Assembly (NCBI GenBank): GCA_012730105.1
Contig: JAAYBJ010000158.1
Coordinates: 1 to 35,565, forward strand
DNA length: 35,565 bases
Direction of reading: 5' to 3'
Source of the DNA: Candidatus Hydrogenedentota bacterium
GTDB taxonomy: Bacteria > Hydrogenedentota > Hydrogenedentia > Hydrogenedentales > CAITNO01
Numbering within the stretch: the first letter of the stretch is position 1; every line of letters starts with the position of its first letter. Shown piece by piece: positions 629 through 35,565 of this stretch. A model generated the notes under the pieces. It was not told where the DNA came from and ran no database searches. It was given only the letters and a program-made list of their open reading frames with translations. The position numbers and the translations under genes are program-made.

Positions 629-629
629 C

Positions 630-2569: not shown

Positions 2570-2576
2570 GGACAGG

Positions 2577-2934
2577 CAAGCGGGCCGAACGGTCGCGGTG
2601 CGGCTTCGGGCCGCATCGAGGAAAGTCCGGGCTCCACAGGGCAGGACGCTTCGTAACGCGAAGGCGGAGCAATCCGACGGAAAGTGGCACAGAAAATACA
2701 CAGCCCGTTTCGTCGGGCAATGGTGAAAAGGTGCGGTAAGAGCGCACCAGCGTCGTGGCGACACGGCGGCTCGCTAAACCCCGTCCGGAGCAAGTCCAAA
2801 TAGGGAACCCATGGCGCGGCCCGCGTCGGTTCCGGGTAGGACGCTTGAGGCATGCGGCGACGCATGTTCCAGATGAATGACCGTTCACGGGCGCGCAAGC
2901 GCCCCGGACAGAACCCGGCTTACAGGCCCGCTTG
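2577..2934 (+). ncRNA. rnpB: RNase P RNA, bacterial type A
   Basis: Catalytic RNA of ribonuclease P, which trims 5' leaders from pre-tRNAs. The ends form a perfect 10-bp P1 helix: CAAGCGGGCC (2577-2586) with GGCCCGCTTG (2925-2934). Between them are the universally conserved blocks in order: GAGGAAAGTCCGGGCTCCAC (about 2624-2643), the GGAAAGTGGCACAGAAAATA region (about 2680-2699), GGTGAAAAGGTGCGGTAAGA (about 2722-2741), the AAACCCC/GGAGCAAG region near 2776-2795, and ACAGAACCCGGCTTACAGG near the 3' end. The GATGAATGACCG element near 2873 is the conserved P4-associated strand. Length of about 360 bases fits type A. The mature 3' end may extend a few bases past P1. Downstream is the alkyltransferase gene, only 38 bases away. 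Confidence 0.97.
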
Positions 2935-2972
2935 CACTTGACAGCTGTTGGGACATAAAGCAGGAGATGCCG

Positions 2973-3485
2973 ATGACCCTTGCCGCCGCCAATTTCCGCT
3001 TTCATTTTCCGGGCGGGGCCTTCTATGGCTATTTTTCATCGGAAGGCCTGCAGGCACTGCATTTGTATCCGGACAGCGCGCCGCCCCCGGTAGTGCTCCA
3101 TTCGGCGCCGAACATCGTGTGGGGCCAGATTCTGTACAGGCTCCTCGAACAATACTTCACGGGTTGCCCGACGGATTTTTCGCCCATTCCCCTCGACCTG
3201 AGCGCGGGCACGGCATTCCAACAATGCGCGTGGCGCGCGGCATGCGACATTCCACACGGCAGCACCGCCAGTTACGGCGCCCTGGCACGAAGGATTGGCA
3301 CGCCCGGCGCGGCGCGGGCCGTGGGCGGAGCCATGGGCGCGAACCCGGTGATTCTTGTTGTGCCCTGTCACCGCATCATCGCTTCGGACGGTTCACTGGG
3401 CGGATACGGTCCCGGGTTATCGTGGAAGAAATGTTTCCTGGCCCTTGAACAGAGCCATTCCGCCTGGACGCCCCCCGCTCAATAA
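2973..3485 (+). CDS. ogt: Methylated-DNA--protein-cysteine methyltransferase
   Basis: DNA repair protein that transfers the alkyl group from O6-alkylguanine to its own cysteine. About 170 residues: an N-terminal ribonuclease-like domain (1-80), then the C-terminal active-site domain with GTAFQQCAWRAACDIPHGSTASYG (DNA-recognition helix region), RAVGGAMGANP, and the catalytic VVPCHRII block followed by DGSLGGYGPGLSWKK. The reading frame continues upstream into rnpB. I place the start at ATG 2973 because AGGAG ends 6 bases before it; ATG 2967 is too close to that site. The 3' end overlaps the convergent nitroreductase gene by 7 bases. Assignment as Ogt/MGMT-type rather than the C-terminal half of Ada follows from the lack of an Ada metal-binding N-domain. 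Confidence 0.93.
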   Translation: MTLAAANFRFHFPGGAFYGYFSSEGLQALHLYPDSAPPPVVLHSAPNIVWGQILYRLLEQYFTGCPTDFSPIPLDLSAGTAFQQCAWRAACDIPHGSTASYGALARRIGTPGAARAVGGAMGANPVILVVPCHRIIASDGSLGGYGPGLSWKKCFLALEQSHSAWTPPAQ

Positions 3486-3976
3486 CATTCCCAGTGCAGT
3501 ACATCCTTCAAGGCCCGCTTGGGCGGGGCGGGAATGGCGGCGGGATGCCCCAGGGCAATAAGGCTGACCAATTTTTTGTCCGCCGGGACACCGAGCAATG
3601 CACCCATTTCCCCTGCGTATTCTTTTTTATCACCTGCCACCCAGCATCCGCCCACACCGAGCGCCCAGGCGGCGTTTAATATGTTCTGCGTGGCGGCCGA
3701 GCCGTCTTCGAGGTAATACCGGGTGTCGCTACAGAACACGGCGATACACGCGGCCGCGCCGGCGATGTGCTTGCCGTGCTGGGTTATGTCCGCGATGCGC
3801 GCCCGCATCGCCGGGTCCGTGACCACCACGAATTCCCAGGGCTGTTCATTGCGGGCCGTACAGGCAAGGCGGCCGCAATCCACAATGGCTTCCAGTATTT
3901 CACTGCTTAGCTGCTTGCTCCCGTCATACACACGCACGCTTCTGCGTTCGCGCAGAACTTGCAGGGCATCCATCAT
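3479..3976 (-). CDS. Nitroreductase-family FMN oxidoreductase
   Basis: A 165-residue protein of the NfsB/FRase-like flavin fold, expected to reduce nitro or quinone-like compounds with NAD(P)H as a dimer. Visible hallmarks are the N-terminal RRSVRVYDGSKQLSSEILEAIVDCGRLACTA block with the FMN-phosphate-binding RRSVR, the NEQPWEFVVVTD strand (about 43-54), the ILNAAWALGVGGCWVAG flavin-contact region (about 99-115), and the LGVPADKKLVSLIALGHP segment near the C-terminus. It is short compared with many members (about 180-220 residues). Start ATGATG has GGAAG about 7 bases upstream. It converges with the alkyltransferase gene with a 7-base overlap. Substrate unknown. Confidence 0.9.
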   Translation of the reverse strand: MMDALQVLRERRSVRVYDGSKQLSSEILEAIVDCGRLACTARNEQPWEFVVVTDPAMRARIADITQHGKHIAGAAACIAVFCSDTRYYLEDGSAATQNILNAAWALGVGGCWVAGDKKEYAGEMGALLGVPADKKLVSLIALGHPAAIPAPPKRALKDVLHWECY

Positions 3977-4109
3977 GATGATACTTCCTTGTAATTTGGG
4001 TTCTTTCCGGCACCTTCACCGGAGTACACAGGTTAACGGGAATCAACCGGCAGGCTGCCGGGCACGTGCGCGGACCGCCTGGAAGTGGGGCAATTCATGG
4101 CATCATCCG

Positions 4110-5027
4110 CTACGGCGCGACTTCCACCGCTTCCCCTTTCTTGAGATACAGGATAACATCACGGCCGGAGGCCGCATGTCTGGAAATGCTCAACACGCGG
4201 TGGTCGGAATCCCCGACCTGGGTCTCCGCGTACTGGTGGGCGGATTCTTCGTCATCAAACACTTCAATATTGATATTATCGTAGCCCTCGTATTGCTTGC
4301 GCAAGTCCCGGCCAAGTTGCTCGATGTCTTCGCGCCGGCTGCGCGGTGGCACAACGCCCACGATGCCTTTCAGCGATGCGGCGCCTTCACCAATCTCCGC
4401 CACCATCTCCGGGGAACGTCCCCACTCCTGTACGGTGGAGAAAGAAAAGGGTTCCGGTTCGCCTTCCTCCTCATCCTCTTGGAAGGCGTCCTCAGGAACA
4501 TCAGGCGGCAACATGGGTTCCCCGGGGAACGACTCCATGTGCCCCTCCCCTGCCGTCATCGTTTCCGGCGCCGCTTGTTCCTGTGCCTCCAGCACTTCCC
4601 GGATGATGCCGATACCGGGACGTGGCACACGGGCAGGGTCAGGCAAACCATATTCGGTATGTTGTTGGCCCAAGCGAAAAACCTCCTGGCGCAGATACTC
4701 ATTCTCCTGGCGCTGGTCGGCCATCACCTGATTGACGAGCAGATCGAGGGTCGCCTGAAGCAGGCGCAGTTCATCCCGAACGGTCTGAATTTCCAGCCGG
4801 AGCGCCTCCATGGGATCCTTGGGTGTCTTCGCATCTTCCTTTTCGCGAAGTTCTTCGGGGACGGGATCCTGTCCGGACACTTCCTCCTGGGGCAACACGC
4901 GCACTTCAATATGAGTTTTAGGGATCTCGAAGTCCGGCTTGGTCGGGTCTCCTTCGGCAACAGCGAGTGCCGCAACAGAGAGGAGAACGCCTGCCCCTAC
5001 AAGGTGTTTTAACATGGTCTTCATCAT
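4110..5027 (-). CDS. Secreted acidic coiled-coil protein of unknown function
   Basis: A 305-residue exported protein I do not recognise. Residues 1-24 form a Sec signal peptide (MMKTMLKHLV, a hydrophobic core, then an ALAVA cleavage site). Residues about 73-120 (EALRLEIQTVRDELRLLQAT and onward) are a predicted coiled coil. Residues about 125-200 are low-complexity, rich in P and E, including an EDEEEGEPEP run. The C-terminal 100 residues look folded, with a GIVGVVPPRSRREDIEQLGRDL segment and alternating strands ending in VILYLKKGEAVEV. This layout fits a periplasmic spacer or trimer-forming protein, but no function is assigned. It is 118 bases downstream of the GH9 gene on the same strand. 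A TATACT -10-like element lies at 5086-5091 on the minus strand, so it may have its own promoter. Confidence 0.7.
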   Translation of the reverse strand: MMKTMLKHLVGAGVLLSVAALAVAEGDPTKPDFEIPKTHIEVRVLPQEEVSGQDPVPEELREKEDAKTPKDPMEALRLEIQTVRDELRLLQATLDLLVNQVMADQRQENEYLRQEVFRLGQQHTEYGLPDPARVPRPGIGIIREVLEAQEQAAPETMTAGEGHMESFPGEPMLPPDVPEDAFQEDEEEGEPEPFSFSTVQEWGRSPEMVAEIGEGAASLKGIVGVVPPRSRREDIEQLGRDLRKQYEGYDNINIEVFDDEESAHQYAETQVGDSDHRVLSISRHAASGRDVILYLKKGEAVEVAP

Positions 5028-5145
5028 GTGCTCAGGTATCCTGAAACCGCTTTCATTTCCCCGGTGCAGCCCGTGCCGCCAGTCCAGTATAGCATTTCAG
5101 ACGGCATCCAGCCCTTACATAACGCCTGTGTGCCGCGGAAAGTTG

Positions 5146-8100
5146 TCACAAGCCGGGCTCGTGCGCGGAAACCAGTTGCGCCAGGGCGTTCAGCAGCGCC
5201 GTATTATGGGGAAGCCACACTTCATTGGATTCGTAACCGGGAATATCCCGCCCGGTCATGTCAAAGCGCGGCCGGTCGTCCCCAACCGAACGCCAGGTGA
5301 TTCCGTTGACCACGCCCCCGGGGACGGCGCCCCGTTTCACTCCGGAAAAAGCGTACCGGTGGTGATAGGAAGGCGCAAAGACGCTGCCCACCTCTTCCAT
5401 CAGACTGATGTTATAGGGATTCACGCCGAGGACCCAGTTAAACTGGTCGTAAATAAACCTCATAAATTCCGGCCTGCATTCATAGCGGCACGCCATGGCC
5501 ATGTATGCCGCCGCTTCCAGGAGGTAACTGTTTGTGCCCACGCGCCAGCCGCCTTTATCCGCGGGTGTCCCAAAAAAATTTGGCTTGTCGGCCGGGCCAA
5601 AGGTATACACTCCAAAGGGATTCGCCGCGAGCGTAAGCATCTGTTCCGCCTTGCGCAGCACCTCGGGCCCCAACCGCGCCGCCAGGGATGTCCCGAATAC
5701 GGCATCATAACGGCCGGCCGTTTCAATGTGCGCGGACGAGGGCTCCGTCACGCCTGTTTCGGGAAACAGTTCCGCACTCAGCGCCGAGGCGATCTCGGCA
5801 CGGCCCGCCTCGCCCGTGCAGGCGAATAAATCAACGGCCGTGCTCAACTGCGGCAGACCGCGGTGCCCTTCTTTCAGCGCATAGTCCAGGCTGCGCGCCG
5901 CAGTGTCCACCCATTCCCGGTATTCCGTATCCATGGCGTTTTTACCGCCAAACAGGGCAGCGATGCGCGCCAGCGCCGCCTGATGCATATCCGGGTTGTC
6001 CCCGGACACCCGGCTGCCCGGCCGCTCATCCCCGGTTCCGGGAATGTTGTCCGTTTCCAGTTCCGGCGGGCCCCAGAAACCGTAACCGGAGGTGATGGCT
6101 CCGAAAGCGGAACCGTCCGCCATGACCATGCGGCGCACATGGTCGCCGCCCCACAGGATCTCATCAAAAAACTCACTGAAACCCGAGGTCGCTTTGCCCA
6201 GCGCGTCAAAGGCGTCCTGCTGTGCGGTGTAGGCGCAGGCCAGCCCGTACACATAGGGGGCGTTGTGATATTTATTGTAATCACCCGCGTCGTGCCAGCC
6301 GCCCCAGAGGGGATACTGGCCCGCACTGTCCGGCCCTGCGGCATCATCCAGGTGGCAAGCCTCATGGAATCCCGGGATGGCCATGCCGCAGCGCTGGTAA
6401 TAGAAAAAGCGGTAACCGGGCCGCACGCACGCGTCCCACAGCCGGTTTACACCGACTTCAAAGGGCCAGGAGGATTCGGCCTCCCCGTCTAAAAACACGC
6501 GTATCCGGTACTTGCCCGGCACATTCACCTCCGAGAAATCACCGGAATAGTAGTAATAGCCCCAGTCCCTTCCGTAATGACCGGTTATACGGGCCGGGGA
6601 TTCAAGCGCTCCATTATGAACGGTGGCGCTCTCCCCGTTCACAACTTGATAAGAAAACGTCGCCGCCTTGAAATTGGACTGAACGACAAAACGCTTGGGT
6701 GCGCCGACATCATACCCGGCCTGGTTGACAAGTACCTCGAAACGGGACGGCTCCGTGCGAACGACCCGAATATCGGCACTATCCCAATATACGGCGGGCC
6801 CCTCAGATTCCAATGCCACGACGAGGTAACGCGCGCCCGCCGGCGGTACTGCATCAACAAGATCAAGAGGTATCCATCCCCTGTCTTCCCTCTTTTCGGA
6901 CAAGGTGTCTTCACGCAGCACGCCGGTATTGCCCAACCACTGCAACCGGGCGTGCGCCAGACCGCCCAGACGATATACGGCCGCAGAGACCTTCCGCCAG
7001 GAAGGGTTAACCGGTACAGGCTCCGACAGAATAAGCCCCGCTCCGTCCGCGCGCAGGGATCGGGCCCCGTCACGGGCCTGTTCTTCCGATAGTTGCCACG
7101 ATACCTCGCCCAGCGTGGCCATGCGCCAACCCTGCGGACGGGATGTCACGGTTGCATAAAAGGGGCCGTTGGGGTCAAATTGTTCCAAGCCCTCCTTGAC
7201 TTTTCCTCTCTCGAAATCGCCGAAGATTTCCAGGGATTCCTCCAGTTCCACGTATCCGGGCGCGCCTGATCCAAGTTGAAAAGACGATCCGCTTTGCCTC
7301 GCGTCGAATCGCCGGGCCGGCCAGGGCACGCACAGATCCGAATACCGTGCGTCCGTTGACAGGCAACGCAGTTTCCGGTCGCTACCGCACAGCAGGACAT
7401 CCGTCATGCCGTCCCCGTCCACATCCGCCAGGGAGAGCGGGAAAATAAGGCGCATACCCGTGCCGTAACGCCACTGGAGCCTTCCTTGCCCATCCAGGCA
7501 GTACAGAAAATGATCTCCCGAAGCGGCCAGCACATCCGCCTGCCCATCCCCCGTGACATCACCCAGGCTTATGGCGATATGCACTGAAGTCAATGTCTGA
7601 AAGGTCCACAACAACACGCCTGCGGGTGAAAATACATATACATGGCCGGCACTGTCACCCAGTACGATCTCGTCCCGGCCGTCGGCGTTAATATCCCCAA
7701 CCGCAACCGACCCGGCGCTGTAGGTGTCCGGAATGGCATGCAGGGGGGCTTTCCAAACCGGAACGCCCGTATCCGCGTCAAAGCGCCACAGGAACGCGTC
7801 ATCCCGCGACGCGGCATAGATCTCCGCCTTGCCGTCTTGATCGGCATCGGCCAGAATCACCCCGCCCGGGAAGTCGTCGCCCGTATTATGTTCATACACC
7901 AGACCGCCCCCGTGGCTGACCCGGAAAATGCCGTACCCGCTCGCGCCAAAAAGATCCACGATGTCGTCGCCGTCCACATCCGCCGCCGCCATGCCGCCCC
8001 GTATGCGCAAGGGCGGACTCCCTTCCGTTTCAGGCAGATGCCATAAAAGATCCCCCCCTTCCCCGTAGGCATGGATGCCCTTGTTTTCGGTGGGAACCAC

Positions 8101-8532
8101 CAGCATCTGTTTCCTAGAATCCGGTCCGGGCATCCATAAGACGCCGCCCCATTCAACGGCGCCCGGTTCGCGCCGCCACAACAGCGCACCCGTCGATGCG
8201 TCGAGGCAAACCACGCTCCCATCGCCGTTGGCAACGGCAAGCCGACGGAGGCCGTCATCGCTTGCATCGCTCAAGGCCGCAGAAGAAACCAGTCGCTTGG
8301 CCCAGTTCCCGTCATATTCCCAAAGCGGTTCTCCCGCAGCGCTGATGCAGCGCAAAATGCCCGCTTCGCTGTCGCAGATAACCGTCTCCAGCCCGGGGGA
8401 CGGCGCCATGTCGGCCACCAGGGGCGGCGCATAGAGATTGGACAGCGCTTCATACTGCCAGGTGAGTTCCGGTTCCCTGACCATGGAGGTGGTTGAGGCC
8501 AGGGCAATCATCACGACAAGGGACAGCGACAT
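5146..8532 (-). CDS. Exported beta-propeller / glycoside hydrolase family 9 fusion
   Basis: A 1128-residue secreted enzyme expected to hydrolyse beta-1,4-glucan or a related polysaccharide by inversion. Residues 1-17 are the signal peptide. Residues about 20-400 form an FG-GAP/PQQ-like propeller: repeated blades such as SLGDVTGDGQADVLAAS and AVGDINADGRDEIVLGDS carry calcium-binding DxDxDGxxD-type loops. Residues about 430-595 look like a carbohydrate-binding-type jelly roll. From about 600 follow the GH9 immunoglobulin-like domain (FEVLVNQAGYDVGAPKRFVV) and the catalytic (alpha/alpha)6 barrel. The barrel has GGWHDAGDYNKY with the catalytic aspartates at about 748/751, SYHHRY at about 1055-1060, and the acid YESNEVW with Glu at about 1104. 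The start at 8532 has GGAGA 7 bases upstream; the frame is open 11 codons further. A propeller fused to GH9 is unusual. Confidence 0.93.
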   Translation of the reverse strand: MSLSLVVMIALASTTSMVREPELTWQYEALSNLYAPPLVADMAPSPGLETVICDSEAGILRCISAAGEPLWEYDGNWAKRLVSSAALSDASDDGLRRLAVANGDGSVVCLDASTGALLWRREPGAVEWGGVLWMPGPDSRKQMLVVPTENKGIHAYGEGGDLLWHLPETEGSPPLRIRGGMAAADVDGDDIVDLFGASGYGIFRVSHGGGLVYEHNTGDDFPGGVILADADQDGKAEIYAASRDDAFLWRFDADTGVPVWKAPLHAIPDTYSAGSVAVGDINADGRDEIVLGDSAGHVYVFSPAGVLLWTFQTLTSVHIAISLGDVTGDGQADVLAASGDHFLYCLDGQGRLQWRYGTGMRLIFPLSLADVDGDGMTDVLLCGSDRKLRCLSTDARYSDLCVPWPARRFDARQSGSSFQLGSGAPGYVELEESLEIFGDFERGKVKEGLEQFDPNGPFYATVTSRPQGWRMATLGEVSWQLSEEQARDGARSLRADGAGLILSEPVPVNPSWRKVSAAVYRLGGLAHARLQWLGNTGVLREDTLSEKREDRGWIPLDLVDAVPPAGARYLVVALESEGPAVYWDSADIRVVRTEPSRFEVLVNQAGYDVGAPKRFVVQSNFKAATFSYQVVNGESATVHNGALESPARITGHYGRDWGYYYYSGDFSEVNVPGKYRIRVFLDGEAESSWPFEVGVNRLWDACVRPGYRFFYYQRCGMAIPGFHEACHLDDAAGPDSAGQYPLWGGWHDAGDYNKYHNAPYVYGLACAYTAQQDAFDALGKATSGFSEFFDEILWGGDHVRRMVMADGSAFGAITSGYGFWGPPELETDNIPGTGDERPGSRVSGDNPDMHQAALARIAALFGGKNAMDTEYREWVDTAARSLDYALKEGHRGLPQLSTAVDLFACTGEAGRAEIASALSAELFPETGVTEPSSAHIETAGRYDAVFGTSLAARLGPEVLRKAEQMLTLAANPFGVYTFGPADKPNFFGTPADKGGWRVGTNSYLLEAAAYMAMACRYECRPEFMRFIYDQFNWVLGVNPYNISLMEEVGSVFAPSYHHRYAFSGVKRGAVPGGVVNGITWRSVGDDRPRFDMTGRDIPGYESNEVWLPHNTALLNALAQLVSAHEPGL

Positions 8533-8628
8533 GGGATTCTCCTTATCTCTGGACAATCGAGGCAAATGAAATAATCAGGGTTATGCAACAGTTCCCCGGC
8601 CTCTCGCGATCGCCTGAATAACCGGCGC

Positions 8629-9339
8629 TTATACCAGTTTCGGCAGCAGCTCCAGAAAATGATTCCAGGAAGGCAGAACATGGTCCGCCCGGGTGCCATC
8701 GGCAAAACTATCATTTACTTCCGTAAAAAGCCCCGCCAGACTGTTGACCTGGTGGGCACCGACAATGTCGGTAGGTTCCAGGTCGCCGATATGAAAGAGT
8801 TCGTGGGGCGCCACACCCAGGCGTTCCGCCGTGCTTTCGAACATGAAACGCTGCGGCTTGGCCACGCCCGTTTCATCGGAAAAGGCGAATGATTTAAAAA
8901 GCGGTAAAAAACCTTCCCGTTCAAGGAGGACGCGCAGGTTGCGCCCCGGACTAAACCCGGTGTCGGATATAAGTGCCACGGGCACCTTTTCCGCGGCAGC
9001 CATCACCGCCTCAAGGGCATTGTCAATCGGCGCGGGAGGATGGACCAGGATAGCTGTTCCAAAGACTTCGGCCAAGTCCTCAGCGCTATCCGAATCCAGG
9101 TACAGCTGATACTTGTCGCAGGCAAGTTCCACCGCGTCCTTGGGCGTCAGGGTATGCTGCGTTTCCAGGTGCTTCCGCATGAAATGGTCCATGATCTCGC
9201 GGAGCGTCTCGTCTGATTCCTCCTCACTGATACCGGTGGCGTCGGAAAGGGCCTTCACCCGGAGGGCATGGCGTTTCGCACCATTGGCGTCACGGAAAAG
9301 GGTGCACCAGAAATCGAAAGTTATCGCACGAACGGTCAT
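8629..9339 (-). CDS. HAD-superfamily hydrolase
   Basis: A 236-residue cytosolic protein with all four haloacid-dehalogenase motifs. Motif I is FDFWCTLFRD with the nucleophile Asp9. Motif II is LISDTG with its Ser/Asp (about 124-129). Motif III is the lysine in GVAKPQRFMF. Motif IV is HIGDLEPTDIVGA. The helical cap lies between motifs I and II (about 20-95). Position +2 after the nucleophile, which is Asp in typical phosphatases, is Trp11, so a classical phosphatase acid/base residue is missing; many uncharacterised HADs share this. The start ATG has AAGGA about 11 bases upstream. It is 96 bases upstream of the GH9 gene on the same strand and divergent from the sialidase/M23 gene. Substrate unknown. 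Confidence 0.9.
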   Translation of the reverse strand: MTVRAITFDFWCTLFRDANGAKRHALRVKALSDATGISEEESDETLREIMDHFMRKHLETQHTLTPKDAVELACDKYQLYLDSDSAEDLAEVFGTAILVHPPAPIDNALEAVMAAAEKVPVALISDTGFSPGRNLRVLLEREGFLPLFKSFAFSDETGVAKPQRFMFESTAERLGVAPHELFHIGDLEPTDIVGAHQVNSLAGLFTEVNDSFADGTRADHVLPSWNHFLELLPKLV

Positions 9340-9436
9340 GGTTACGGCTATCCTTGTGAGGCTGTGACGGGCGTCCGCTGCAACGTCTTGCTCTTTGCCC
9401 CGGCAAAGCGGACTGTGTTTCCCATCAGCGAGTGTT

Positions 9437-9442
9437 TATAAT
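9437..9442 (+). promoter_or_regulatory. Candidate -10 element for the sialidase-like/M23 gene
   Basis: A consensus TATAAT sits 91 bases before the chosen start codon in the divergent intergenic region between the HAD hydrolase and the sialidase-like/M23 gene. No good -35 hexamer lies at 16-18 bases, so the call rests on the -10 and location only. Confidence 0.35.
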
Positions 9443-9532
9443 ACCGAACGCAACACCGAATTACAAGGCTCCGGAAGGAACGGCGCGTTTGCGCCGACCC
9501 TGCCGGTCACCCACAGAAAAAGGCATCCCATC

Positions 9533-12178
9533 ATGCATTATTCAAAGGTTCAGAGAAGTATTGTATTCCTCCTGGCGGCGGGATTGTTCCCTGCCTTTTC
9601 GGCCTGTCCGGACGAATGCGCGCCGGTTCCCTTCGACATCAGCCTGGACACCGTGGTAGAGCATGACGACGGCAAGTTTTTGTGGTTTCATCCGCGCATC
9701 GCCGTCATTCCCCAGGCAGGCAAGGAAGGCAACCCGGCAGTATTCATGACCCTGCAGAAGCACCTGCAGGTGTCAGATTTTTATTCCGGACTTTACTCCA
9801 TGCGCACTGATGACCTGGGCAAGACCTGGGCGGGACCCACCGAAATCCCGGAACTCGCCTGGCGCGACGGGCCGAAGGGTTCCATCCTGGCGGTATGCGA
9901 CGTCACCCCCGGCTATCATCCCATTACCGGCAAGGTGCTCGCCATCGGCGCGCAACTGTACTACCAACCCGACGGCAGCCTGTTTGAAAAAACGGACCGC
10001 GCGGACCAGACCGCCTATGCCGTTTACGATCCGGGAACCGGAAAATGGACCGGATGGAAGGTGATCGAAATGCCCGGTGATCCGAAATTTAATTTCGCGC
10101 GCAATGCTTGCGCACAATGGCTGATCGAGCCAAACGGCGATCTCCTGTTGCCCCTGTATTTCGGCGTTGACGCGAAACAGGATTTTTCGGTCACCGTGGC
10201 GCGCTGTTCTTTTGACAGCAAAACGATCACCTATCTTGAACACGGCACGGAAATGACCGTCAGCGGCGGCCGCGGCCTGTGCGAACCGTCCCTGGCCCGA
10301 TTCCGGGACCGCTACTTCCTGACCCTGCGCAACGATGCGGGCGGATATGTCACCTCAAGTCGCGACGGGCTTCACTTTGACCCCATCACCCCGTGGCAGT
10401 TTGACGACGGAGGGGAGTTGGGCTCCTACAACACGCAGCAGCACTGGGTCACTCATTCGGACGGACTTTTCCTGGTCTATACACGGCGAGGCGCGGACAA
10501 CGACCACGTTTTCCGCCACCGTGCTCCGCTCTTTATCGCACAGATCAATCCCGACACGCTGCGGGTTCTGCGTGCCACCGAACGCGTGCTGATCCCGGAA
10601 CGGGGCGCGACACTGGGTAACTTCGGCGCCGCGGCCGTCAACGAGCATGAATCCTGGGTCACCGTCAACGAGGGTATCTGGGATGACGACATTTGCGCGC
10701 GCGGCGCGAAAGGCACCCTGTTCTGCGCCCGGATACACTGGCAGGCCCCCAACCTCGCCGTACGCTTCCCCTACCCTTCGCAGCCCACCCTCTTCTCCTT
10801 AACAGACATGAACGTCAACGAACCCGCCGAAGTCTCGCTGTCGGACGGCGTTCCTGCGGCCGTTGAAGTTCTGGAACTGACGGAAACCCGCGACCCCATC
10901 CGGGACGCCATGCGCCGCGCAGACGTGCGCGTGAAAATCAACGACGAAGAAACAGTGATCAACTCCGGCCTGTATAACCGGCCCGTTTCCGTTGGCGGCG
11001 TGCTGGTAGACTGTCCCGTCACCAAGGGGTACAACCTCGGTAGCGGCGACGATCCCTGGAGCCTGAAGAAAGACGTCCGACTGCGTGTTTGGCCGGGGAA
11101 CAGTCCGCTGACCGATCCGGCCACGTTTGTATATCCCATTAACCAGGTATGGCACGGATCACTTACCTGGTTCGACAACGAACCTGTGGACGGCGGCGCC
11201 ACGATATCAAAAACCGTCTATTACCACTCGGGCATCGACATCGGCGGCGTGGAAGGGCGCACCCGGGTGCTGGCCGCAACGGATGCACTGGTCGTGTCCG
11301 CAAGGGACATCACCTTGCCGGGCTTCACGGAAGACACGCCGATCAAGCCCCGCGCCGATGTTATTTACCTGTATGACGCCCGGGGCTGGTTCTATCGCTA
11401 CAGTCATTTCCACACCATCGACACTGCCATACAACCGGGAATCTATGTCCGCAAAGGCGACTTTCTCGGGCTGGTAGGCAAGGAGGGTGCCAGCGGCGGG
11501 TGGTCTCACCTGCATTTTGAAATCAAGTGCCGGCAACCCGGCGGCGGCTGGGGAACATTACCTTCCCACGCGCTTATCCGGGAAGCTTATATGCGGGAGT
11601 ATCACCCCGATCTGCTCGCCTGCGCCCGACAGCGACACCTGATCAAAGCGGGCGAAACGGTAACCTTGGACGCCTCCCATTCCTGGAGCGCGGCAGGCGA
11701 TATCATCGCCTATGAATGGCGCTTTACGGATGGCGAAACGGCTTCCGGCGTTCAGGTGGAACGAACGTATCCGCAACCGGGCAAATACGAGGAAATTCTG
11801 AAGATAACGGACAGTGCGGGAAAGGAGGACTATGATTTCGCGCTGGTGCAGGTTCTCGACCCGGAACAGCCCGAACGCTACACGCCTTCGCTGCACCTCG
11901 CTTTTGCACCCAGCCTGAACCTCAAGCCCGGCGACGCGGTCACCTTTTCCGTGCGGGCCTTCGGTTTTGACGGCGGTGAAGAACACTGGGATTTCGGGGA
12001 CGGCAGTCCCGGGATACGGACGCAGTCGGGACAAAACAAGGATCCACACGCCCCGAACGGCTACACCTTTCTTGAGCACGCCTACGAAAACGCCGGAGAG
12101 TACATCGTCACGGTACACCGCGAGAACACAAAAGACATCCCGGCCTTCGCCCACCTGCAGGTGCGGGTCGGACCGTGA
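9533..12178 (+). CDS. Exported sialidase-like / M23 metallopeptidase / double PKD protein
   Basis: An 881-residue secreted multidomain protein. Residues 1-24 are a signal peptide ending near AFSAC, so lipoprotein processing at Cys25 is possible. Residues about 40-400 form a sialidase-like beta-propeller with an Asp-box motif (RTDDLGKTW, 91-99) and a late blade (FGAAAVNEHESWVTVNEGIW). Residues about 535-670 are a lysostaphin-type M23 domain: zinc ligands His565 and Asp569 in HSGIDIGG, and the HLHFE motif with His659 and His661; the YRYSHFH segment also fits. Two PKD domains follow (about 700-775 and 795-880, with YEWRFTDG and EHWDFGDGSP). The expected role is binding and cleaving peptide cross-links or glycan-linked proteins outside the cytoplasm. 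I chose ATG 9533 because it precedes the signal peptide; the frame is open further upstream. Confidence 0.9.
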   Translation: MHYSKVQRSIVFLLAAGLFPAFSACPDECAPVPFDISLDTVVEHDDGKFLWFHPRIAVIPQAGKEGNPAVFMTLQKHLQVSDFYSGLYSMRTDDLGKTWAGPTEIPELAWRDGPKGSILAVCDVTPGYHPITGKVLAIGAQLYYQPDGSLFEKTDRADQTAYAVYDPGTGKWTGWKVIEMPGDPKFNFARNACAQWLIEPNGDLLLPLYFGVDAKQDFSVTVARCSFDSKTITYLEHGTEMTVSGGRGLCEPSLARFRDRYFLTLRNDAGGYVTSSRDGLHFDPITPWQFDDGGELGSYNTQQHWVTHSDGLFLVYTRRGADNDHVFRHRAPLFIAQINPDTLRVLRATERVLIPERGATLGNFGAAAVNEHESWVTVNEGIWDDDICARGAKGTLFCARIHWQAPNLAVRFPYPSQPTLFSLTDMNVNEPAEVSLSDGVPAAVEVLELTETRDPIRDAMRRADVRVKINDEETVINSGLYNRPVSVGGVLVDCPVTKGYNLGSGDDPWSLKKDVRLRVWPGNSPLTDPATFVYPINQVWHGSLTWFDNEPVDGGATISKTVYYHSGIDIGGVEGRTRVLAATDALVVSARDITLPGFTEDTPIKPRADVIYLYDARGWFYRYSHFHTIDTAIQPGIYVRKGDFLGLVGKEGASGGWSHLHFEIKCRQPGGGWGTLPSHALIREAYMREYHPDLLACARQRHLIKAGETVTLDASHSWSAAGDIIAYEWRFTDGETASGVQVERTYPQPGKYEEILKITDSAGKEDYDFALVQVLDPEQPERYTPSLHLAFAPSLNLKPGDAVTFSVRAFGFDGGEEHWDFGDGSPGIRTQSGQNKDPHAPNGYTFLEHAYENAGEYIVTVHRENTKDIPAFAHLQVRVGP

Positions 12179-12217
12179 GCTAACGCACAGACCCTGGTCA
12201 GGAACAAACAGCATGAG

Positions 12218-12276
12218 GCGACATCGACCGATCGGACGGATTAAACCGATCGGTCTGATCCCTTCCGAGATGTCGC
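12218..12276. other. Long bulged inverted repeat after the sialidase/M23 gene
   Basis: Outer arms GCGACATC (12218-12225) and GATGTCGC (12269-12276) and inner arms GACCGATCGG (12226-12235) and CCGATCGGTC (12246-12255) are both perfect. They form an 18-bp stem with a 10-base loop and a 13-base bulge on one side. There is no T-run, so this is not a plain intrinsic terminator. It could be an mRNA 3'-end structure, a leader element for the next gene or an operator dyad. Confidence 0.55.
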
Positions 12277-12315
12277 GAAAACCGCCCTACCTTTCATCGC
12301 CGCTTTTTGTTATGA

Positions 12316-12321
12316 TATAAA
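12316..12321 (+). promoter_or_regulatory. Candidate -10 region for the Gfo/Idh/MocA-like gene
   Basis: An AT-rich patch contains overlapping TATGAT (12311-12316) and TATAAA (12316-12321) in an otherwise GC-rich gap, about 135 bases before the start codon. The -35 match is weak. Confidence 0.3.
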
Positions 12322-12454
12322 ATCTAACCGGTCGGCGGTAGTGGGCAACAACTGCCGTACCCGGACATTCTGTATCGTGGTTCGGTTGCCGGGGAGGCGG
12401 GATCCCGGGCCCGTACCAGTTTTGAACACTGTTATGGGGAAAAGGAAGGAACGC

Positions 12455-13420
12455 ATGGAGTCTGTAAAAATCGGTTTCATCGGCTGCGGCGGCATAGCCG
12501 CAGTGCACCGGGACCGGCTCGTACGAAGAAATGATATTGAACTTGTCGGATGTTGCGACATCCTCCCCGAACAGGCGGAAAGCTTTGCGGCCCGATGGCG
12601 GATACCTATTTTTAAGGACGCTGTTTCCCTGTACGACAATGCCCGCCCGCACGCAGTCTACATCTCGGTACCCCCATTCGCCCACGGCGCACTCGAAACG
12701 GAGGCCGCCGCGAGGGGCATCCACCTGTTCGTCGAAATGCCTGTCGCCCTGGACCTCCAGACGGCACGCGCCATAAGCGCGGCCATACGCAAGGCGAAGG
12801 TACTCGCCATGGTCGGGTACTGTTACCGGTACTGTGATTTGACGCAGCAAGCCCACCGCCTGCTGGCCGGGGAAGTCATTTCCCTGGCAACGGGCAGGTT
12901 CCATTGCGGCATGCCCGAAGCAGACTGGTGGCGGCGCCGGGAACAAAGCGGCGGCCAGATCGTGGAACAGACCACCCATGTCATTGACCTGCTGCTTCAC
13001 CTTTGCGGCCCGGTTTCAGAAGTGCATGCCATGGGCGCCCACGGCTGCATGTCTAAAATAAAAAATTTCGACGTGGACGAAAGCAGCGTGATCAATCTGC
13101 GCCTGAAAACAGGGGCAGTGGCTTCCATTTCGTCCACCTGCATTTTGAACCACCCCGGCAGCATGTCTTTGGAAATCGCCACGCCGCGTCTCTGTCTTGC
13201 CTTGACCAATGAAACGTTGCGCGTCCGGGAGGACCACAAGATCGTCGAATATCTCAACCATACCGACATGTACGAGAAAGAGAGCGAACTGTTTATCCAT
13301 GCCGTTCAACAGGGCAAGCGCGGTGGCATTCGAAGCACCTACGCAGACGCGATAAAAACGCTGCGCGTGACACTCGCCGCCAACGAGTCTATTCAAACAG
13401 GCCTGCCTGTCGTATTATAA
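12455..13420 (+). CDS. Gfo/Idh/MocA-family oxidoreductase-like protein with altered EKP motif
   Basis: A 321-residue protein. The N-terminal Rossmann fold starts with KIGFIGCGGIAAVHRDRL (nucleotide-binding GCGGIA at 10-15), followed by YISVPPFAH, where sugar dehydrogenases of this family read the NAD(P) ring. The C-terminal alpha/beta substrate domain runs from about 125 to 321 and includes GGQIVEQTTHVIDLLLHLCG, the usual helix carrying the family's catalytic histidine. The motif that is normally EKP, with a lysine contacting cofactor and substrate, reads EMP (residues 94-96). Activity may therefore be altered or absent. AAGGAAGGA just before ATG 12455 fixes the start; the frame is open further upstream. 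The aldo-keto reductase follows 78 bases later, suggesting cotranscription. Substrate unknown. Confidence 0.9.
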   Translation: MESVKIGFIGCGGIAAVHRDRLVRRNDIELVGCCDILPEQAESFAARWRIPIFKDAVSLYDNARPHAVYISVPPFAHGALETEAAARGIHLFVEMPVALDLQTARAISAAIRKAKVLAMVGYCYRYCDLTQQAHRLLAGEVISLATGRFHCGMPEADWWRRREQSGGQIVEQTTHVIDLLLHLCGPVSEVHAMGAHGCMSKIKNFDVDESSVINLRLKTGAVASISSTCILNHPGSMSLEIATPRLCLALTNETLRVREDHKIVEYLNHTDMYEKESELFIHAVQQGKRGGIRSTYADAIKTLRVTLAANESIQTGLPVVL

Positions 13421-13498
13421 TGGCGGTGCGAACAGAAGGTTCCGGCAGTCTTCCAGCCCCGGTTTCCGGGAAAGCCGCCGATGATGCAAGGAGTATTC

Positions 13499-14494
13499 AT
13501 GTACTATAGAACACTCGGAACGAGCGGTCTTAACGTTTCCGTGATAGCTTTCGGCGCCTGGCAGATAGGCGATCCGGACTTCTGGGGAGCGGACGCCGAG
13601 GCCGACCCGGACGGCGTGGTGGGCGCTGCGGTCGACGCGGGGATCAACCTGTTCGATACAGCCGAAGTGTACGGCGACGGGCGCTCGGAAGAGGTGCTGG
13701 GGAAAGCCCTCCGGGGGCGCAGAGACAAAGTGTACATCGCCTCCAAGGCATTCACGGAAAGCTGCACGCCCGAAGGACTGCGCATCGCCTGCGAAAACAG
13801 CCTGCGCCGCCTGGGCACTGACCATATCGACCTGTACCAGATTCATTGGCCCTTTACCGCCTCCGCCTATGAGGAAATCACGCCCGTACTCCAAGCCCTG
13901 AAAACGGAAGGCAAAATACGGGAAATCGGCGTGTCCAATTTCGGTCCGGAAGACCTCGACACCTGGATGAAAATTGGCGCGGCGGTGTCCAATCAGATCG
14001 GGTATAACATGCTCTTCCGCGCGCCGGAATATGAGATGCTCCCGGCGTGCCGGCGCTACGATCTGAGCATCCTGGCCTACATGCCCCTCATGCAGGGACT
14101 GTTGTCCGGACGCTATCGACAACTGGACGACATCCCCATGAAGCGTCGCAGGTCGCGCCATTTCGCCGCTTCCCGGGAAGGCACGCGCCATGGCGAACCA
14201 GGTCACGAAGAACTGCTGTCGGATACACTGGAAGAATTGTCGGACTTCGCCGAGGCGGTCCATGTTCCCCTGGCAGTGCTCAGTTTGAGCTGGCTGATCG
14301 CTCAGCCGGGCCTCACCTCGGCCATTGTCGGCGCCCGCAAAATCAACCAGCTGCTGGCCAACCTGCAGGCGGCGGAACTCGACGTGGGTCCGGCCGCCAT
14401 CGCCCAGCTGAATGAAATCTCTTACCCCCTGAAACGGGCTATGGGCTATAATTGCGACATGTGGGAAACGGACGCGAATTCTCGAATTCATTAA
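13499..14494 (+). CDS. Aldo/keto reductase
   Basis: A 331-residue NADPH-dependent aldo/keto reductase with a TIM-barrel fold. The catalytic tetrad is visible: Asp53 and Tyr58 in FDTAEVYGDG, Lys83 in ASKAF, and His116 in DLYQIHWP. The C-terminal cofactor segment is present (LTSAIVGARKINQLLANL). The N-terminal MYYRTLGTSGLNVSVIAFGAW is typical of the YajO/AKR11-13 type. AAGGAG lies 5 bases before ATG 13499, which decides the start; the frame is open 6 codons upstream. It lies 78 bases after the Gfo/Idh/MocA-like gene and 13 bases before a glycosyltransferase gene, so the three likely form one transcript. The physiological carbonyl substrate is unknown. Confidence 0.93.
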   Translation: MYYRTLGTSGLNVSVIAFGAWQIGDPDFWGADAEADPDGVVGAAVDAGINLFDTAEVYGDGRSEEVLGKALRGRRDKVYIASKAFTESCTPEGLRIACENSLRRLGTDHIDLYQIHWPFTASAYEEITPVLQALKTEGKIREIGVSNFGPEDLDTWMKIGAAVSNQIGYNMLFRAPEYEMLPACRRYDLSILAYMPLMQGLLSGRYRQLDDIPMKRRRSRHFAASREGTRHGEPGHEELLSDTLEELSDFAEAVHVPLAVLSLSWLIAQPGLTSAIVGARKINQLLANLQAAELDVGPAAIAQLNEISYPLKRAMGYNCDMWETDANSRIH

Positions 14495-14507
14495 ACTGAC
14501 GGTTACC

Positions 14508-15470
14508 ATGATTACATTTGTCATCCCCGTATATAACGAATCGGCCACGCTGGAGCGGCTGGCGCAAGGCATTCATGAAAACATCGGCAGCCACCCCTAC
14601 CGCATTCTGTTCATCGACGACGGCAGCACCGACGGCTCCTGGGATATCTTGCGCGCCCTGCGCGAACGAAACAGCGTCGTGGACATTGTCCGGCTGCGCC
14701 GCAATTTCGGCAAGACAAGCGCCTTGGCCGCCGGATTCGCCCTGGCGCACGGGGACATCATTGTCACCATGGACGCCGACCTGCAGGACGACCCCAAAGA
14801 AATACCGGCGTTGCTGGCCAAACTCGATGAGGGGTATGACGTGATATGCGGCTGGAAACAGCGGCGTCATGACCCCTGGCACAAAACCGTGCCGTCCCGA
14901 ATTTTCAACGCGTGGATTTCACGCACCTTCCAACTCCCGCTGCACGATGTTAACAGCGGTTTTAAGGTAATCCGGGGCGAGGTGGCGTCTCAGCTGCCCT
15001 TGTGGAGTGACATGCACCGCCTGATTCCCGTGTTTGCCGCCAATATGGGTTACAAGGTGACGGAAATTCCCGTACAGCACCATCCCCGCACCCACGGCAA
15101 ATCCAAGTACGGCTTTGAAAGGTTTATACGGGGCGCCATGGACGCCATCACCGCGACTTTTCTGACACGTTACGGCGACGCGCCCGGCCAGTATTTCGGC
15201 CGGATGATGTTGTTCTGCGGCTCCTTGGTCATTCTTTCCCTGATCGTAGCACTGATTTCCGGGTTGGCCGTCCCGGCCTTGTACAGTGACGCGCCGCACA
15301 ATGAACAGCTGGCACTCACGGCCATCGTGCTGATGCTGGTGCTGATCAGTCTTGTAATTATCAGTATCGGCGCGCTGGGACTCGGCCTGGGCTTGTTGGG
15401 AGAACTGCTCTTACGTTACCTGCCGGCGCCGGATCCGAAACGGCGCATCGCGGAAACACACATGGGGTGA
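14508..15470 (+). CDS. Membrane-anchored GT2 glycosyltransferase (polyprenyl-phosphate type)
   Basis: A 320-residue enzyme resembling dolichol/undecaprenyl-phosphate glycosyltransferases (DPM1/GtrB/ArnC style), which load a sugar from a nucleotide donor onto polyprenyl phosphate at the inner membrane. Motifs: VIPVYNES (5-12), FIDDGSTDGSWD (35-46), NFGKTSALAAGF, the donor/metal-binding MDADLQDDP (88-96), and the HPRTHGKSKYG stretch (192-202) seen in this subgroup. Two membrane helices lie at about 233-257 and 270-298, followed by a basic C-terminal tail. The gene starts 13 bases after the aldo/keto reductase stop. A second, different GT2 is at 24222-25355. The sugar is unknown. Confidence 0.92.
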   Translation: MITFVIPVYNESATLERLAQGIHENIGSHPYRILFIDDGSTDGSWDILRALRERNSVVDIVRLRRNFGKTSALAAGFALAHGDIIVTMDADLQDDPKEIPALLAKLDEGYDVICGWKQRRHDPWHKTVPSRIFNAWISRTFQLPLHDVNSGFKVIRGEVASQLPLWSDMHRLIPVFAANMGYKVTEIPVQHHPRTHGKSKYGFERFIRGAMDAITATFLTRYGDAPGQYFGRMMLFCGSLVILSLIVALISGLAVPALYSDAPHNEQLALTAIVLMLVLISLVIISIGALGLGLGLLGELLLRYLPAPDPKRRIAETHMG

Positions 15471-15547
15471 CGTGAAGCCCGGGTATGCCTGTCTTGTAAG
15501 CGTGTAATCAAGCGTTGATACGGCGTCTGAATAGAGGAGATTACTAT

Positions 15548-16039
15548 ATGGTCAACAAGATGGAAAGTCACCCTCTGGAAGGGAAAAAGGCGCCCGGTTT
15601 TTCCCTGGAATCCGGCAGCGGCGCCACAGTCATACTTTCGGGGCTCAAAGGCAAAATCGTAGTGCTGTATTTTTACCCGAAAGACAACACTTCCGGATGC
15701 ACCCTGGAAGCAAAGGAATTCCGCGACCTCCGGCAGGAATTCGACGCACTGGGCGCCGTTGTACTCGGCGTGAGCCCGGATAGCGCGGCTTCCCACTGCA
15801 AATTCGCCGACAAGTATGAACTGGGCTTTGAATTGCTGGCCGATACCGATCACACCCTTGCGGAACAATACGGGGTGTGGGCGGAGAAAAGCATGTATGG
15901 TAAAAAGTACATGGGCATTGTGAGAACCACCTTTCTCATTGACGGCAAGGGTAAAATCCATCACGTCTGGAGCAAAGTGAAACCCGCGGGCCACGCCGCG
16001 GAAGTGCTCGACACCGTCCGGGAACTGGCCACTTCTTAA
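15548..16039 (+). CDS. bcp: Peroxiredoxin, BCP/PrxQ family, shifted resolving cysteine
   Basis: A 163-residue thiol peroxidase that reduces hydroperoxides using thioredoxin-type donors. The thioredoxin fold and peroxidatic site are present: YFYPKDNTSGCTLEAKEFRDL with peroxidatic Cys51. The family's common resolving cysteine five residues later is Lys56 here. Another cysteine, Cys84 in the SAASHCKFADKY helix, lies near the position used by the second PrxQ subgroup with a resolving cysteine in helix 3, so it may serve instead; this is inference. The C-terminal strands RTTFLIDGKGKIHHVW are standard. GAGGAG before ATG 15548 fixes the start. Its role next to a glycosyltransferase and a symporter is probably general oxidative defence. 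Confidence 0.92.
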   Translation: MVNKMESHPLEGKKAPGFSLESGSGATVILSGLKGKIVVLYFYPKDNTSGCTLEAKEFRDLRQEFDALGAVVLGVSPDSAASHCKFADKYELGFELLADTDHTLAEQYGVWAEKSMYGKKYMGIVRTTFLIDGKGKIHHVWSKVKPAGHAAEVLDTVRELATS

Positions 16040-16110
16040 GTGGGTTTTACGCGGTCGCTTTCCCTTTTTTGCCCGGTGTAATAACGCAACAAATTAAAAA
16101 GGATGCATTC

Positions 16111-17901
16111 ATGCTGTTAACGCCTGTCGATTGGGGCATTGTTTTTCTTTTCTTCCTACTTTCTCTTGTCATCGGCCTGGTGGTCACCAAAAAGGCGGGC
16201 TCCAACACCACAGAATTTTTTGCCGCGGGCCGGAGCATGCCCTGGTGGTTGTTGGGTGTATCCATGGTCGCCACCACCTTCTCCACCGACACGCCCAACC
16301 TGGTGGCGAATATCGTGCGGAAAAACGGCGTGGCTGGAAACTGGGTCTGGTGGGCTTTTTTGCTGACCGGCATGCTGACCGTGTTTGTTTACGCCCGCCT
16401 GTGGCGTCGCTCCGGGGTACTGACGGACCTGGAATTTTATGAATTGCGTTACAGCGGCAAATCAGCAGCCTTCCTGCGGGGGTTTCGCGCGATTTACCTG
16501 GGCGTCTTCTTCAATATTATCGTCATGGCATCCGTATCGCTGGCCGCGATCAAGATCGGCAGCGTCCTGCTAAACCTCAGCCCCATGCAGACCATCCTGA
16601 TCGCGTGCACCATTACGGTCATTTACAGCTCGATGGGCGGGCTGCGCGGCGTGCTGTACACGGACCTGTTTCAGTTCACCATGGCCATGATAGGCGCTGT
16701 GGGGGCGGCCATTGTATCCCTGCGTCACCCCGATATCGGCGGCCTGGCCAACCTCCTTTCCCATCCGGAGGTCCGGGACAAACTCGCCATCCTGCCCGAC
16801 TTTCTCGCCAAAGACCAGAGGCAGATGCTTATCGCGGTTTTTCTAATGCCCATTATGGTCCAGTGGTGGAGCGTGTGGTATCCCGGCTCTGAACCCGGCG
16901 GCGGCAGTTACATCGCCCAAAGGATGCTCGCCGCCAAGGATGAAAATCATGCATTGGGCTCGGCCTTCTTCTTTAACGCCGCCCACTACGCCCTGCGCCC
17001 GTGGCCCTGGATTATTGTGGCCTTGTGTTCCCTGGTCGTCTTCCCGAACCTGGACGCGCTACGCGAGGCCTTCCCCCATGCCGCCTCCCTTGTTAATGAC
17101 GATATGGGCTATCCCGCCATGCTGACCTTCCTGCCGGCAGGGTTGCTGGGGCTGGTGGTGGCCTCCCTCATCGCCGCGTACATGTCCACCATCTCCACCC
17201 ACCTGAACTGGGGCGCCTCCTACCTGGTCCATGACTTTTACCGCCGCTTTGTCCGCCCGAACAGCAGCGAGCATGAACTGGTCCAGGTAGGGCGGGTGGT
17301 CACGGTGGTGCTGATGATTATGGCGGGCGCGCTTGCGCTGGCCATGGAAAGCGCGCTCGACAATTTTAAAATCATGCTCATGGTCGGCGCGGGCACGGGC
17401 CTGATCTTTATCCTGCGCTGGTTCTGGTGGCGCATCAACGCGGCCAGTGAAATCGCGGCCATGGTCATTTCCTTTCTCGTGGCCGTGTATTTCAGTTTTT
17501 TCCACGCCCGGACCGGACTGCCCCCGATTTCGGACTGGTTGCAGCTCTTGCTCACCATTGGCATTACCACGGCGGGCTGGCTCGCAGTCACCTACCTGAC
17601 CCGCCCTGTAGACCAGGACACCCTGGTTAATTTCTGCCGCCAAATCCGCCCAGGCGGTCCCGGCTGGGCCCGGATTTACGCCCTGCTCGGAAAAGAAGAG
17701 ACTTCCGTTGCGGTAGCGTGGCAGGTACCCCAGGGCATCCTGTGCATGGTATTGGGATGCACCGCCATATACGCCGCGCTCTTTTCCACAGGCTACCTGA
17801 TTTACGGCCGATACGCCCTGGGCATCACCCTCGGCGCCGTTGCGGTTGTCGCCTCCGTATTGCTTGCATACAGCTGGAAAAAACTCATCCGGCAATCCTG
17901 A
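16111..17901 (+). CDS. Sodium:solute symporter (SSS family)
   Basis: A 596-residue inner-membrane transporter with about 13-14 predicted helices, coupling sodium entry to uptake of a small solute. Family features: the N-terminal VDWGIVFLFFLLSLVIGL helix, GSNTTEFFAAGRSMPWWLLGVSM with the core-fold loop, STDTPN in helix 2, the GGLRGVLYTDLFQFTMAMIGA region, LPAGLLGLVVASLIAAYMSTISTHLNWGASY where serines around the sodium site are expected, and late helices through VLLAYSW. Sodium/glucose, proline and sialic-acid transporters share this fold, and the sequence alone does not give the substrate. AAAGGA about 9 bases before ATG 16111 supports the start; the frame is open 14 codons upstream. It lies 71 bases after the peroxiredoxin gene and converges with pcm. 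Confidence 0.93.
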   Translation: MLLTPVDWGIVFLFFLLSLVIGLVVTKKAGSNTTEFFAAGRSMPWWLLGVSMVATTFSTDTPNLVANIVRKNGVAGNWVWWAFLLTGMLTVFVYARLWRRSGVLTDLEFYELRYSGKSAAFLRGFRAIYLGVFFNIIVMASVSLAAIKIGSVLLNLSPMQTILIACTITVIYSSMGGLRGVLYTDLFQFTMAMIGAVGAAIVSLRHPDIGGLANLLSHPEVRDKLAILPDFLAKDQRQMLIAVFLMPIMVQWWSVWYPGSEPGGGSYIAQRMLAAKDENHALGSAFFFNAAHYALRPWPWIIVALCSLVVFPNLDALREAFPHAASLVNDDMGYPAMLTFLPAGLLGLVVASLIAAYMSTISTHLNWGASYLVHDFYRRFVRPNSSEHELVQVGRVVTVVLMIMAGALALAMESALDNFKIMLMVGAGTGLIFILRWFWWRINAASEIAAMVISFLVAVYFSFFHARTGLPPISDWLQLLLTIGITTAGWLAVTYLTRPVDQDTLVNFCRQIRPGGPGWARIYALLGKEETSVAVAWQVPQGILCMVLGCTAIYAALFSTGYLIYGRYALGITLGAVAVVASVLLAYSWKKLIRQS

Positions 17902-34264: not shown

Positions 34265-34353
34265 GATAAAGCGCACCCCTTCTTACATCCGTGGAGAATA
34301 CGTGGGGCCTTGCCGCCCCATCCTCTTCGCGTTACCATCCTCTAAGCGTTTGT

Positions 34354-34502
34354 TCTCGTTCCCAAATTCCATTTGGGAACGCAATTGTCCGCGAAGTTCT
34401 ACTTCGCAAATACACGACAGAACACAAATGCCCTTGGGGTGATGAAAAAGGAAATAGAATTTCAAGAGAGAGCGCGTTCCCAAATGGAATTTGGGAACGA
34501 GA
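34354..34502. repeat. Inverted pair of 29-bp palindromic units beside the CRISPR array
   Basis: TCTCGTTCCCAAATTCC... at 34354-34382 and its exact inverted copy at 34474-34502 are each 29 bp and each internally palindromic (GTTCCCAAA/TTTGGGAAC). Between them is a further hairpin, GCGAAG/CTTCGC (34391-34407). The overall form resembles a REP-pair (BIME) or miniature mobile element. It fills part of the gene-free stretch between the glycosidase-like gene and the array. Nothing else is recognised in 34265-34353 apart from a weak hairpin. Confidence 0.7.
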
Positions 34503-34660
34503 GCCAAACAAGACGGTCTTTAACAAAAGAGCCTTACAAACGGGCTTTCAGCAAAGCTCTCCATGTCTCATTCCAAACAACCCAAACAAACGTCAGTCCG
34601 TTTTTTTCGCGACCAGGGAAAATGCAAACACTGTGATGATTGTGTTGTTGGCCAAATATT

Positions 34661-35565
34661 GCTTCAATGGGGCCGCCGAAATTCATCGGCGGAAATCATC
34701 TGCTGGATCAGCCGGTCGTGTCTGGCAAAATGGCTTCAATGGGGCCGCCGAAATTCATCGGCGGAAATCGCCCGCGGCCTGGTTGGAGTGCGCGAAGAGG
34801 TGACGCTTCAATGGGGCCGCCGAAATTCATCGGCGGAAATATGCTTGTTCCGGGTGTTGGCGCTGCGTCAATCGCGAGCTTCAATGGGGCCGCCGAAATT
34901 CATCGGCGGAAATGGAAATTTCTGGCGGCAAAAAAAATAGGGCGCAGCTCGCTTCAATGGGGCCGCCGAAATTCATCGGCGGAAATTCCTCAATACCTAA
35001 CCGTAAACAAGCCGTAACACGCCGCTTCAATGGGGCCGCCGAAATTCATCGGCGGAAATTTTTAGCCGGGCTTGAGGTGCTTATTACGGAACAACAGCTT
35101 CAATGGGGCCGCCGAAATTCATCGGCGGAAATCCGTGCAGGAATCGTATCACAACCCGTGACAAATGTGCTTCAATGGGGCCGCCGAAATTCATCGGCGG
35201 AAATTAATTGAATGGCATGAATTGGCGGTGAAGGTGCTTGTGCTTCAATGGGGCCGCCGAAATTCATCGGCGGAAATCGTGGGTAACCAGCGGCCAGGTA
35301 AGGGAGTAGATTGGCTTCAATGGGGCCGCCGAAATTCATCGGCGGAAATGGAAGCGACACGGAAGAAAAGAAAGAGGAAACATTGCTTCAATGGGGCCGC
35401 CGAAATTCATCGGCGGAAATCATTCTGATATACCTTTTGATCTACCCAATCCGAAGCGCTTCAATGGGGCCGCCGAAATTCATCGGCGGAAATATGGAAC
35501 GAACTATTTGCACCTCCGGAGGTGGCGCGGCTTCAATGGGGCCGCCGAAATTCATCGGCGGAAAT
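34661..35565 (-). CRISPR. CRISPR array, 13 repeats and 12 spacers, incomplete at right edge
   Basis: Thirteen perfect copies of a 36-base repeat (plus strand starts GCTTCAATGG and ends CGGCGGAAAT) start at 34661, 34733, 34805, 34878, 34951, 35024, 35097, 35169, 35242, 35314, 35385, 35458 and 35530. The 12 spacers are 35-37 bases and all different. The repeat holds a 7-bp stem, CCGCCGA/TCGGCGG, with a 6-base loop. Read on the minus strand it ends CCCCATTGAAGC, close to the ATTGAAA(C/G) 3' end common in type I and III repeats, so crRNA is probably made leftward with the leader beyond 35565. The final repeat coincides with the window end. No cas genes are present here, so the subtype is undetermined. 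Bases 34503-34660 hold no degenerate repeat and no gene. Confidence 0.97.

What the first reader, a model, noticed from the sequence alone, without database searches (positions are those of the whole stretch)
34661..35565. Perfect 36-base CRISPR array with no cas genes in view
Thirteen identical repeats with unique 35-37-base spacers show an array that is active or recently active. No cas gene occurs in the preceding 34 kb, so the effector either lies to the right or acts from elsewhere. The repeat combines a strong short stem (CCGCCGA/TCGGCGG) with an ATTGAAGC end, a form I associate with type I arrays but cannot assign to a subtype.
Basis: partly seen in the sequence, partly recalled or inferred. 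Interest (0 to 1): 0.7.

Follow-up and report, generated by a model that had tools for sequence, protein, structure and literature searches.

The report
Half of a split type I-G CRISPR
This is the far end of an ordinary bacterial CRISPR immune memory whose Cas genes seem missing only because the assembly broke inside the repeats; the complete, well-known type I-G gene set sits at the start of another contig of the same genome.

Summary
The array is real: 13 identical 36-nt repeats and 12 unique 35-37-nt spacers at window 34661-35565. The "no cas genes" part is an assembly effect. The window is the whole contig C105, and it ends on the last base of a repeat. The only other place in the 5.6 Mb genome with this repeat (up to 3 mismatches) is base 1 of contig C329: six more identical repeats in the same orientation and register, then a leader-like region and, on the minus strand, a complete type I-G operon in the order cas3g, cas8g1/csx17, cas7g/csb1, csb2 (cas5-cas6), cas4-cas1, cas2. 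The window therefore most likely holds the older, leader-distal half of that array. The 36-nt repeat, 7-bp stem, 4-nt gap and 8-nt ATTGAAGC tag match the published Csb2 processing geometry. Related Hydrogenedentota genomes carry near-identical repeats beside type I-G genes. The genome's two other type I loci (I-C, and I-MYXAN by NCBIfam naming) each have their own, different repeats. No spacer matched phages, plasmids, relatives or other parts of the genome; eight also missed exact seed matches in viral contigs. Only the physical join between the contigs is inferred.

The parts
34661..35565 (-). Leader-distal (older) part of a type I-G CRISPR array: 13 identical 36-nt repeats, 12 spacers of 35-37 nt. 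On the inferred crRNA strand (minus) the repeat reads ATTTCCGCCGATGAATTTCGGCGGCCCCATTGAAGC.
35530..35565 (-). Last repeat, ending on the last base of the contig (C105 is 35565 bases long). The array resumes with the same repeat at C329:1-36 on the same strand.
34661..34696 (-). Terminal (leader-distal) repeat, still perfect. No further degenerate copy lies to its left: the best match in 34301-34655 has 18 mismatches of 36.
34341..34513 (.). Flanking dispersed palindromic repeat element (about 170 bp, folds into a long hairpin). It is not part of the CRISPR array. Its two most similar other copies (92% and 89%) are on C329, upstream of and inside the cas locus, which is weak support for linkage.

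Best explanation
The window holds the leader-distal half of the CRISPR array of one ordinary type I-G CRISPR-Cas locus in a Candidatus Hydrogenedentota genome; the assembler broke the contig at a repeat. Gene order on the transcribed strand: WYL-domain regulator, cas3g, cas8g1 (csx17), cas7g (csb1), csb2 (cas5-cas6 fusion), cas4-cas1 fusion, cas2, leader, 6 repeats, contig break, the window's 13 repeats. Shown here: repeat identity, strand, register, gene identities, and that no other contig carries the repeat. Inferred from the published I-G systems: Cas4-Cas1/Cas2 adds PAM-selected spacers at the leader end on C329; the array is transcribed towards the window; Csb2 cuts 4 nt after the 7-bp stem, giving crRNAs with the 8-nt ATTGAAGC handle, a spacer of about 36 nt and a 28-nt 3' hairpin (about 72 nt in all); Cas7g, Cas8g and Csb2 form Cascade, which recruits Cas3g to destroy matching DNA.
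For: The repeat occurs (up to 3 mismatches) only at the end of C105 (13 copies) and the start of C329 (6 copies), always on the same strand, with whole repeats at both contig ends. The genes on C329 score far over the NCBIfam cut-offs of the I-G-specific models: NF049935 cas4g/cas1g 769 bits, TIGR04113 csx17 550, TIGR02621 cas3g 750, TIGR02570 csb1 96, TIGR02165 csb2 152, cas2 49, and PADLOC agrees. Solved relatives: 8b2x type I-G Csx17, 8ane Cas7, and the 7mi4 Cas4/Cas1 fusion. Repeat geometry (36 nt, 7-bp stem, 4 nt, 8-nt tag) equals that measured for Thioalkalivibrio sulfidiphilus Csb2 (PMC9638904). Near-identical repeats lie beside I-G cas genes in relatives G003, G060, G008, G052, G023 and beside cas4-1/cas2 in G061. 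The region between cas2 and the first repeat has conserved blocks in six genomes, so the leader is on the C329 side. The genome's other two cas loci (C256 I-C; C150 I-MYXAN) have their own, different repeats.
Against: No read or single contig spans the C105/C329 junction; spacers at the break may be missing. Two arrays sharing one repeat at separate sites is not strictly excluded. No spacer target was found, so the PAM and target type are untested.
Confidence: 0.95

Rival explanations
1. Two separate arrays share one repeat: a small array beside the I-G operon (C329) and a second one elsewhere (C105) that is served in trans by the same Cas proteins.
For: The physical join is not shown, and such trans arrays are common in other genomes (general knowledge).
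Against: Both contigs stop exactly at whole repeats. They are the only two contig ends with this repeat and they face each other in the right orientation. The two closest copies of the palindromic element next to the window array lie around the C329 cas genes. Two separate arrays would be expected to leave four broken or closed ends; only two are seen.
Confidence: 0.04
2. A true orphan array with an unknown or missing effector.
For: No cas gene was found on the window contig.
Against: A complete I-G operon with the identical repeat exists in the same genome, and near-identical repeats sit beside I-G genes in relatives.
Confidence: 0.01

Closest known systems
Type I-G (formerly I-U) CRISPR-Cas with Cas8g1/Csx17, as in Thioalkalivibrio sulfidiphilus HL-EbGr7 (PMC9638904; PDB 8ane, 8b2x)
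   Same: Same gene set (cas3g, cas8g/csx17, cas7g/csb1, csb2), 36-nt repeat, 7-bp stem, 4-nt gap and 8-nt 5' handle.
   Different: Different organism and repeat sequence; a WYL-domain gene lies upstream; no biochemical test here.
Cas4-Cas1 fusion adaptation modules of type I-G (PDB 7mi4; Methanosarcina barkeri Cas4/1, PMC10274657)
   Same: Fusion protein of 596 aa with both domains matched over the whole length (768.7 bits; phmmer 4e-180 to 7mi4).
   Different: Only sequence compared.

Membership tests
Type I-G CRISPR-Cas | Cas8g1/Csx17 large subunit | tested here: met
   TIGR04113, 550 bits, cut-off 150; PDB 8b2x Csx17, E 8.6e-75
Type I-G CRISPR-Cas | Csb2 (Cas5-Cas6 fusion) | tested here: met
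   TIGR02165, 152 bits, cut-off 45. A C-terminal histidine (H518, in ASHFGLGLF) is invariant among the full-length relatives compared; its equivalence to Tsu H503 was not aligned.
Type I-G CRISPR-Cas | Csb1/Cas7g | tested here: met
   TIGR02570, 96 bits, cut-off 38; PDB 8ane Cas7, E 6.7e-82
Type I-G CRISPR-Cas | Cas3g helicase-nuclease | tested here: met
   TIGR02621, 750 bits, cut-off 400
Type I-G CRISPR-Cas | Cas4-Cas1 fusion and Cas2 | tested here: met
   NF049935, 769 bits, cut-off 560; TIGR01573, 49 bits, cut-off 24.5
Type I-G CRISPR-Cas | Repeat processed 4 nt 3' of a 7-bp stem to leave an 8-nt handle | tested here: met
   Sequence geometry matches: CCGCCGA/TCGGCGG stem, CCCC, ATTGAAGC (compared with PMC9638904). 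Cleavage itself was not tested.
Type I-G CRISPR-Cas | TTN PAM at protospacers | tested here: inconclusive
   No protospacer found
Type I-G CRISPR-Cas | Array physically contiguous with the cas operon | tested here: inconclusive
   Contiguous on C329 (6 repeats); for the window's 13 repeats it is inferred from matching contig ends

The most novel reading that the evidence does not exclude
In this order of Hydrogenedentota, one repeat and adaptation module (Cas4-Cas1/Cas2) is paired with two different I-G effector modules: Cas8g1/Csx17 in the window's genome, G060 and G008, and Cas8g2/Csb3 in G052 and G023. Cas4-Cas1 stays 67-76% identical while effector proteins are mostly 28-51% identical or not detectable by BLAST, which suggests that effector cassettes were exchanged beneath a conserved memory. 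Both effector variants are already known.
Probability: 0.6. Interest if true: 0.25.

Novelty: new member of a known kind. Interest (0 to 1): 0.08.

Why it matters
It matters little as biology: it adds one more complete type I-G locus, from an uncultured phylum. It is a useful caution, because a CRISPR array that ends exactly at a contig edge should be searched for its continuation in the same genome before it is called an orphan.

Tried and rejected
Spacer targets: blastn of all 17 spacers against phages and plasmids gave no match. Exact 22-nt seed-side scans of eight spacers in IMG/VR gave none. A search of 60 genomes (the genome itself and relatives) found only the array itself, so there is no self-targeting and no shared spacer. 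The exact repeat has no match in GTDB genome contigs; a near variant is found in two Candidatus Hydrogenedentota MAGs. Rfam: only a sub-threshold hit to CRISPR-DR16, plus spurious microRNA hits on the palindromic element. Assignment of the array to the I-C or I-MYXAN loci of the same genome was rejected because these have different repeats. No tRNA was found in the window.

Full report
Thirteen identical 36-nt repeats with 12 unrelated spacers of 35-37 nt run from 34661 to the last base of the window, 35565. The genome search shows that the window is the complete contig C105 of a 5.63 Mb, 343-contig assembly that is 98.5% complete, so the array is cut by the contig end and not just by the window edge.

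The missing cas genes are on another contig. With up to three mismatches the repeat occurs 19 times in the genome: 13 times at the end of C105 and 6 times at the start of C329, all perfect and all on the same strand. C105 ends on the last base of a repeat and C329 begins on the first base of one. The simplest reading is one array of at least 18 repeats and 17 known spacers that the assembler broke at a repeat. The same kind of break is seen at the I-MYXAN array of this genome, where contig C150 also ends on a repeat, and in relatives G018, G060 and G003, whose contigs end at or close to copies of this repeat.

After the sixth repeat of C329 (400) come about 210 bases and then, on the minus strand: cas2 (614-904), a cas4-cas1 fusion (907-2697), csb2 (3277-4872), csb1/cas7g (4886-5977), csx17/cas8g1 (5934-8120), cas3g (8117-10777) and a WYL-domain gene (10788-11801). 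The six cas genes score over the curated cut-offs of their NCBIfam models, five of them I-G-specific, and PADLOC agrees. The closest solved structures for the Cas8g, Cas7g and Cas4-Cas1 proteins are type I-G Csx17 (8b2x), Cas7 (8ane) and a Cas4/Cas1 fusion (7mi4). Motifs read directly from the translations include the Cas3 Walker A (PTGLGKT) and HD (LWHDWGK) motifs, so the genes look intact.

Orientation: the region between cas2 and the first C329 repeat contains conserved blocks in six related loci, as expected of a leader. Transcription therefore runs from C329 towards the window, and the window's left end (34661) is the oldest end. On that strand the repeat reads ATTTCCGCCGATGAATTTCGGCGGCCCCATTGAAGC and folds into a 7-bp stem followed by CCCC and ATTGAAGC. 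This is the geometry reported for T. sulfidiphilus type I-G: a 36-nt repeat, a 7-bp stem, cleavage by Csb2 4 nt beyond the stem, an 8-nt handle and mature crRNAs of 72 nt (PMC9638904).

Association by relatives: repeats identical or near-identical to this one lie beside I-G genes in G003, G060, G008, G052 and G023, and beside cas4-1/cas2 in G061. Two of the matching records are named Candidatus Hydrogenedentota. The genome's other type I loci, I-C on C256 and I-MYXAN on C150, have clearly different repeats, so there is no ambiguity about which system owns the window's array.

Function of individual spacers remains open. No match was found in phages, plasmids, 60 genomes including the window's own, or (eight spacers, exact 22-nt seeds) viral contigs. 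Such a lack is common for uncultured hosts (general knowledge) and does not bear on identity.

Verdict: a real, ordinary type I-G CRISPR-Cas locus split by assembly. The claim of an array without cas genes is explained, and interest is low.

Noticed in passing
window 34341-34513; also G000:C329:11888-12046 and C329:3078-3225: A dispersed element of about 170 bp with palindromic ends (CGTTCCCAAATTCCATTTGGGAACG) that folds into a long hairpin; 93 BLAST matches (many of them partial or reverse-strand hits to one copy) across the genome. The three most alike copies (89-92%) bracket and interrupt the I-G locus, two of them in direct orientation around the whole array and operon.
   Followed up: partly
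L055 (G052:C117) 4830-12898 and L057 (G023:C142) 7775-16459: Relatives with almost the same repeat and 74-76% identical Cas4-Cas1 carry the other I-G effector variant (Cas8g2/Csb3 with divergent Cas7g, Csb2 and Cas3g), suggesting effector-module exchange under a conserved adaptation module.
   Followed up: partly
G000:C256 (L023) 7030-14993 and G000:C150 (L025) 7531-15933: The same genome has two more complete type I systems: I-C, and a Cmx8-containing I-MYXAN type with its own Cas4-Cas1 fusion. That makes three type I systems with three unrelated repeats.
   Followed up: partly
L051 (G003:C238) 1-5214 and L050 (G003:C327): In a same-genus relative, cas2 and the array are separated from cas4-cas1 by contig breaks and unrelated sequence that includes a transposase-like ORF: an insertion or a chimeric assembly.
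   Followed up: no
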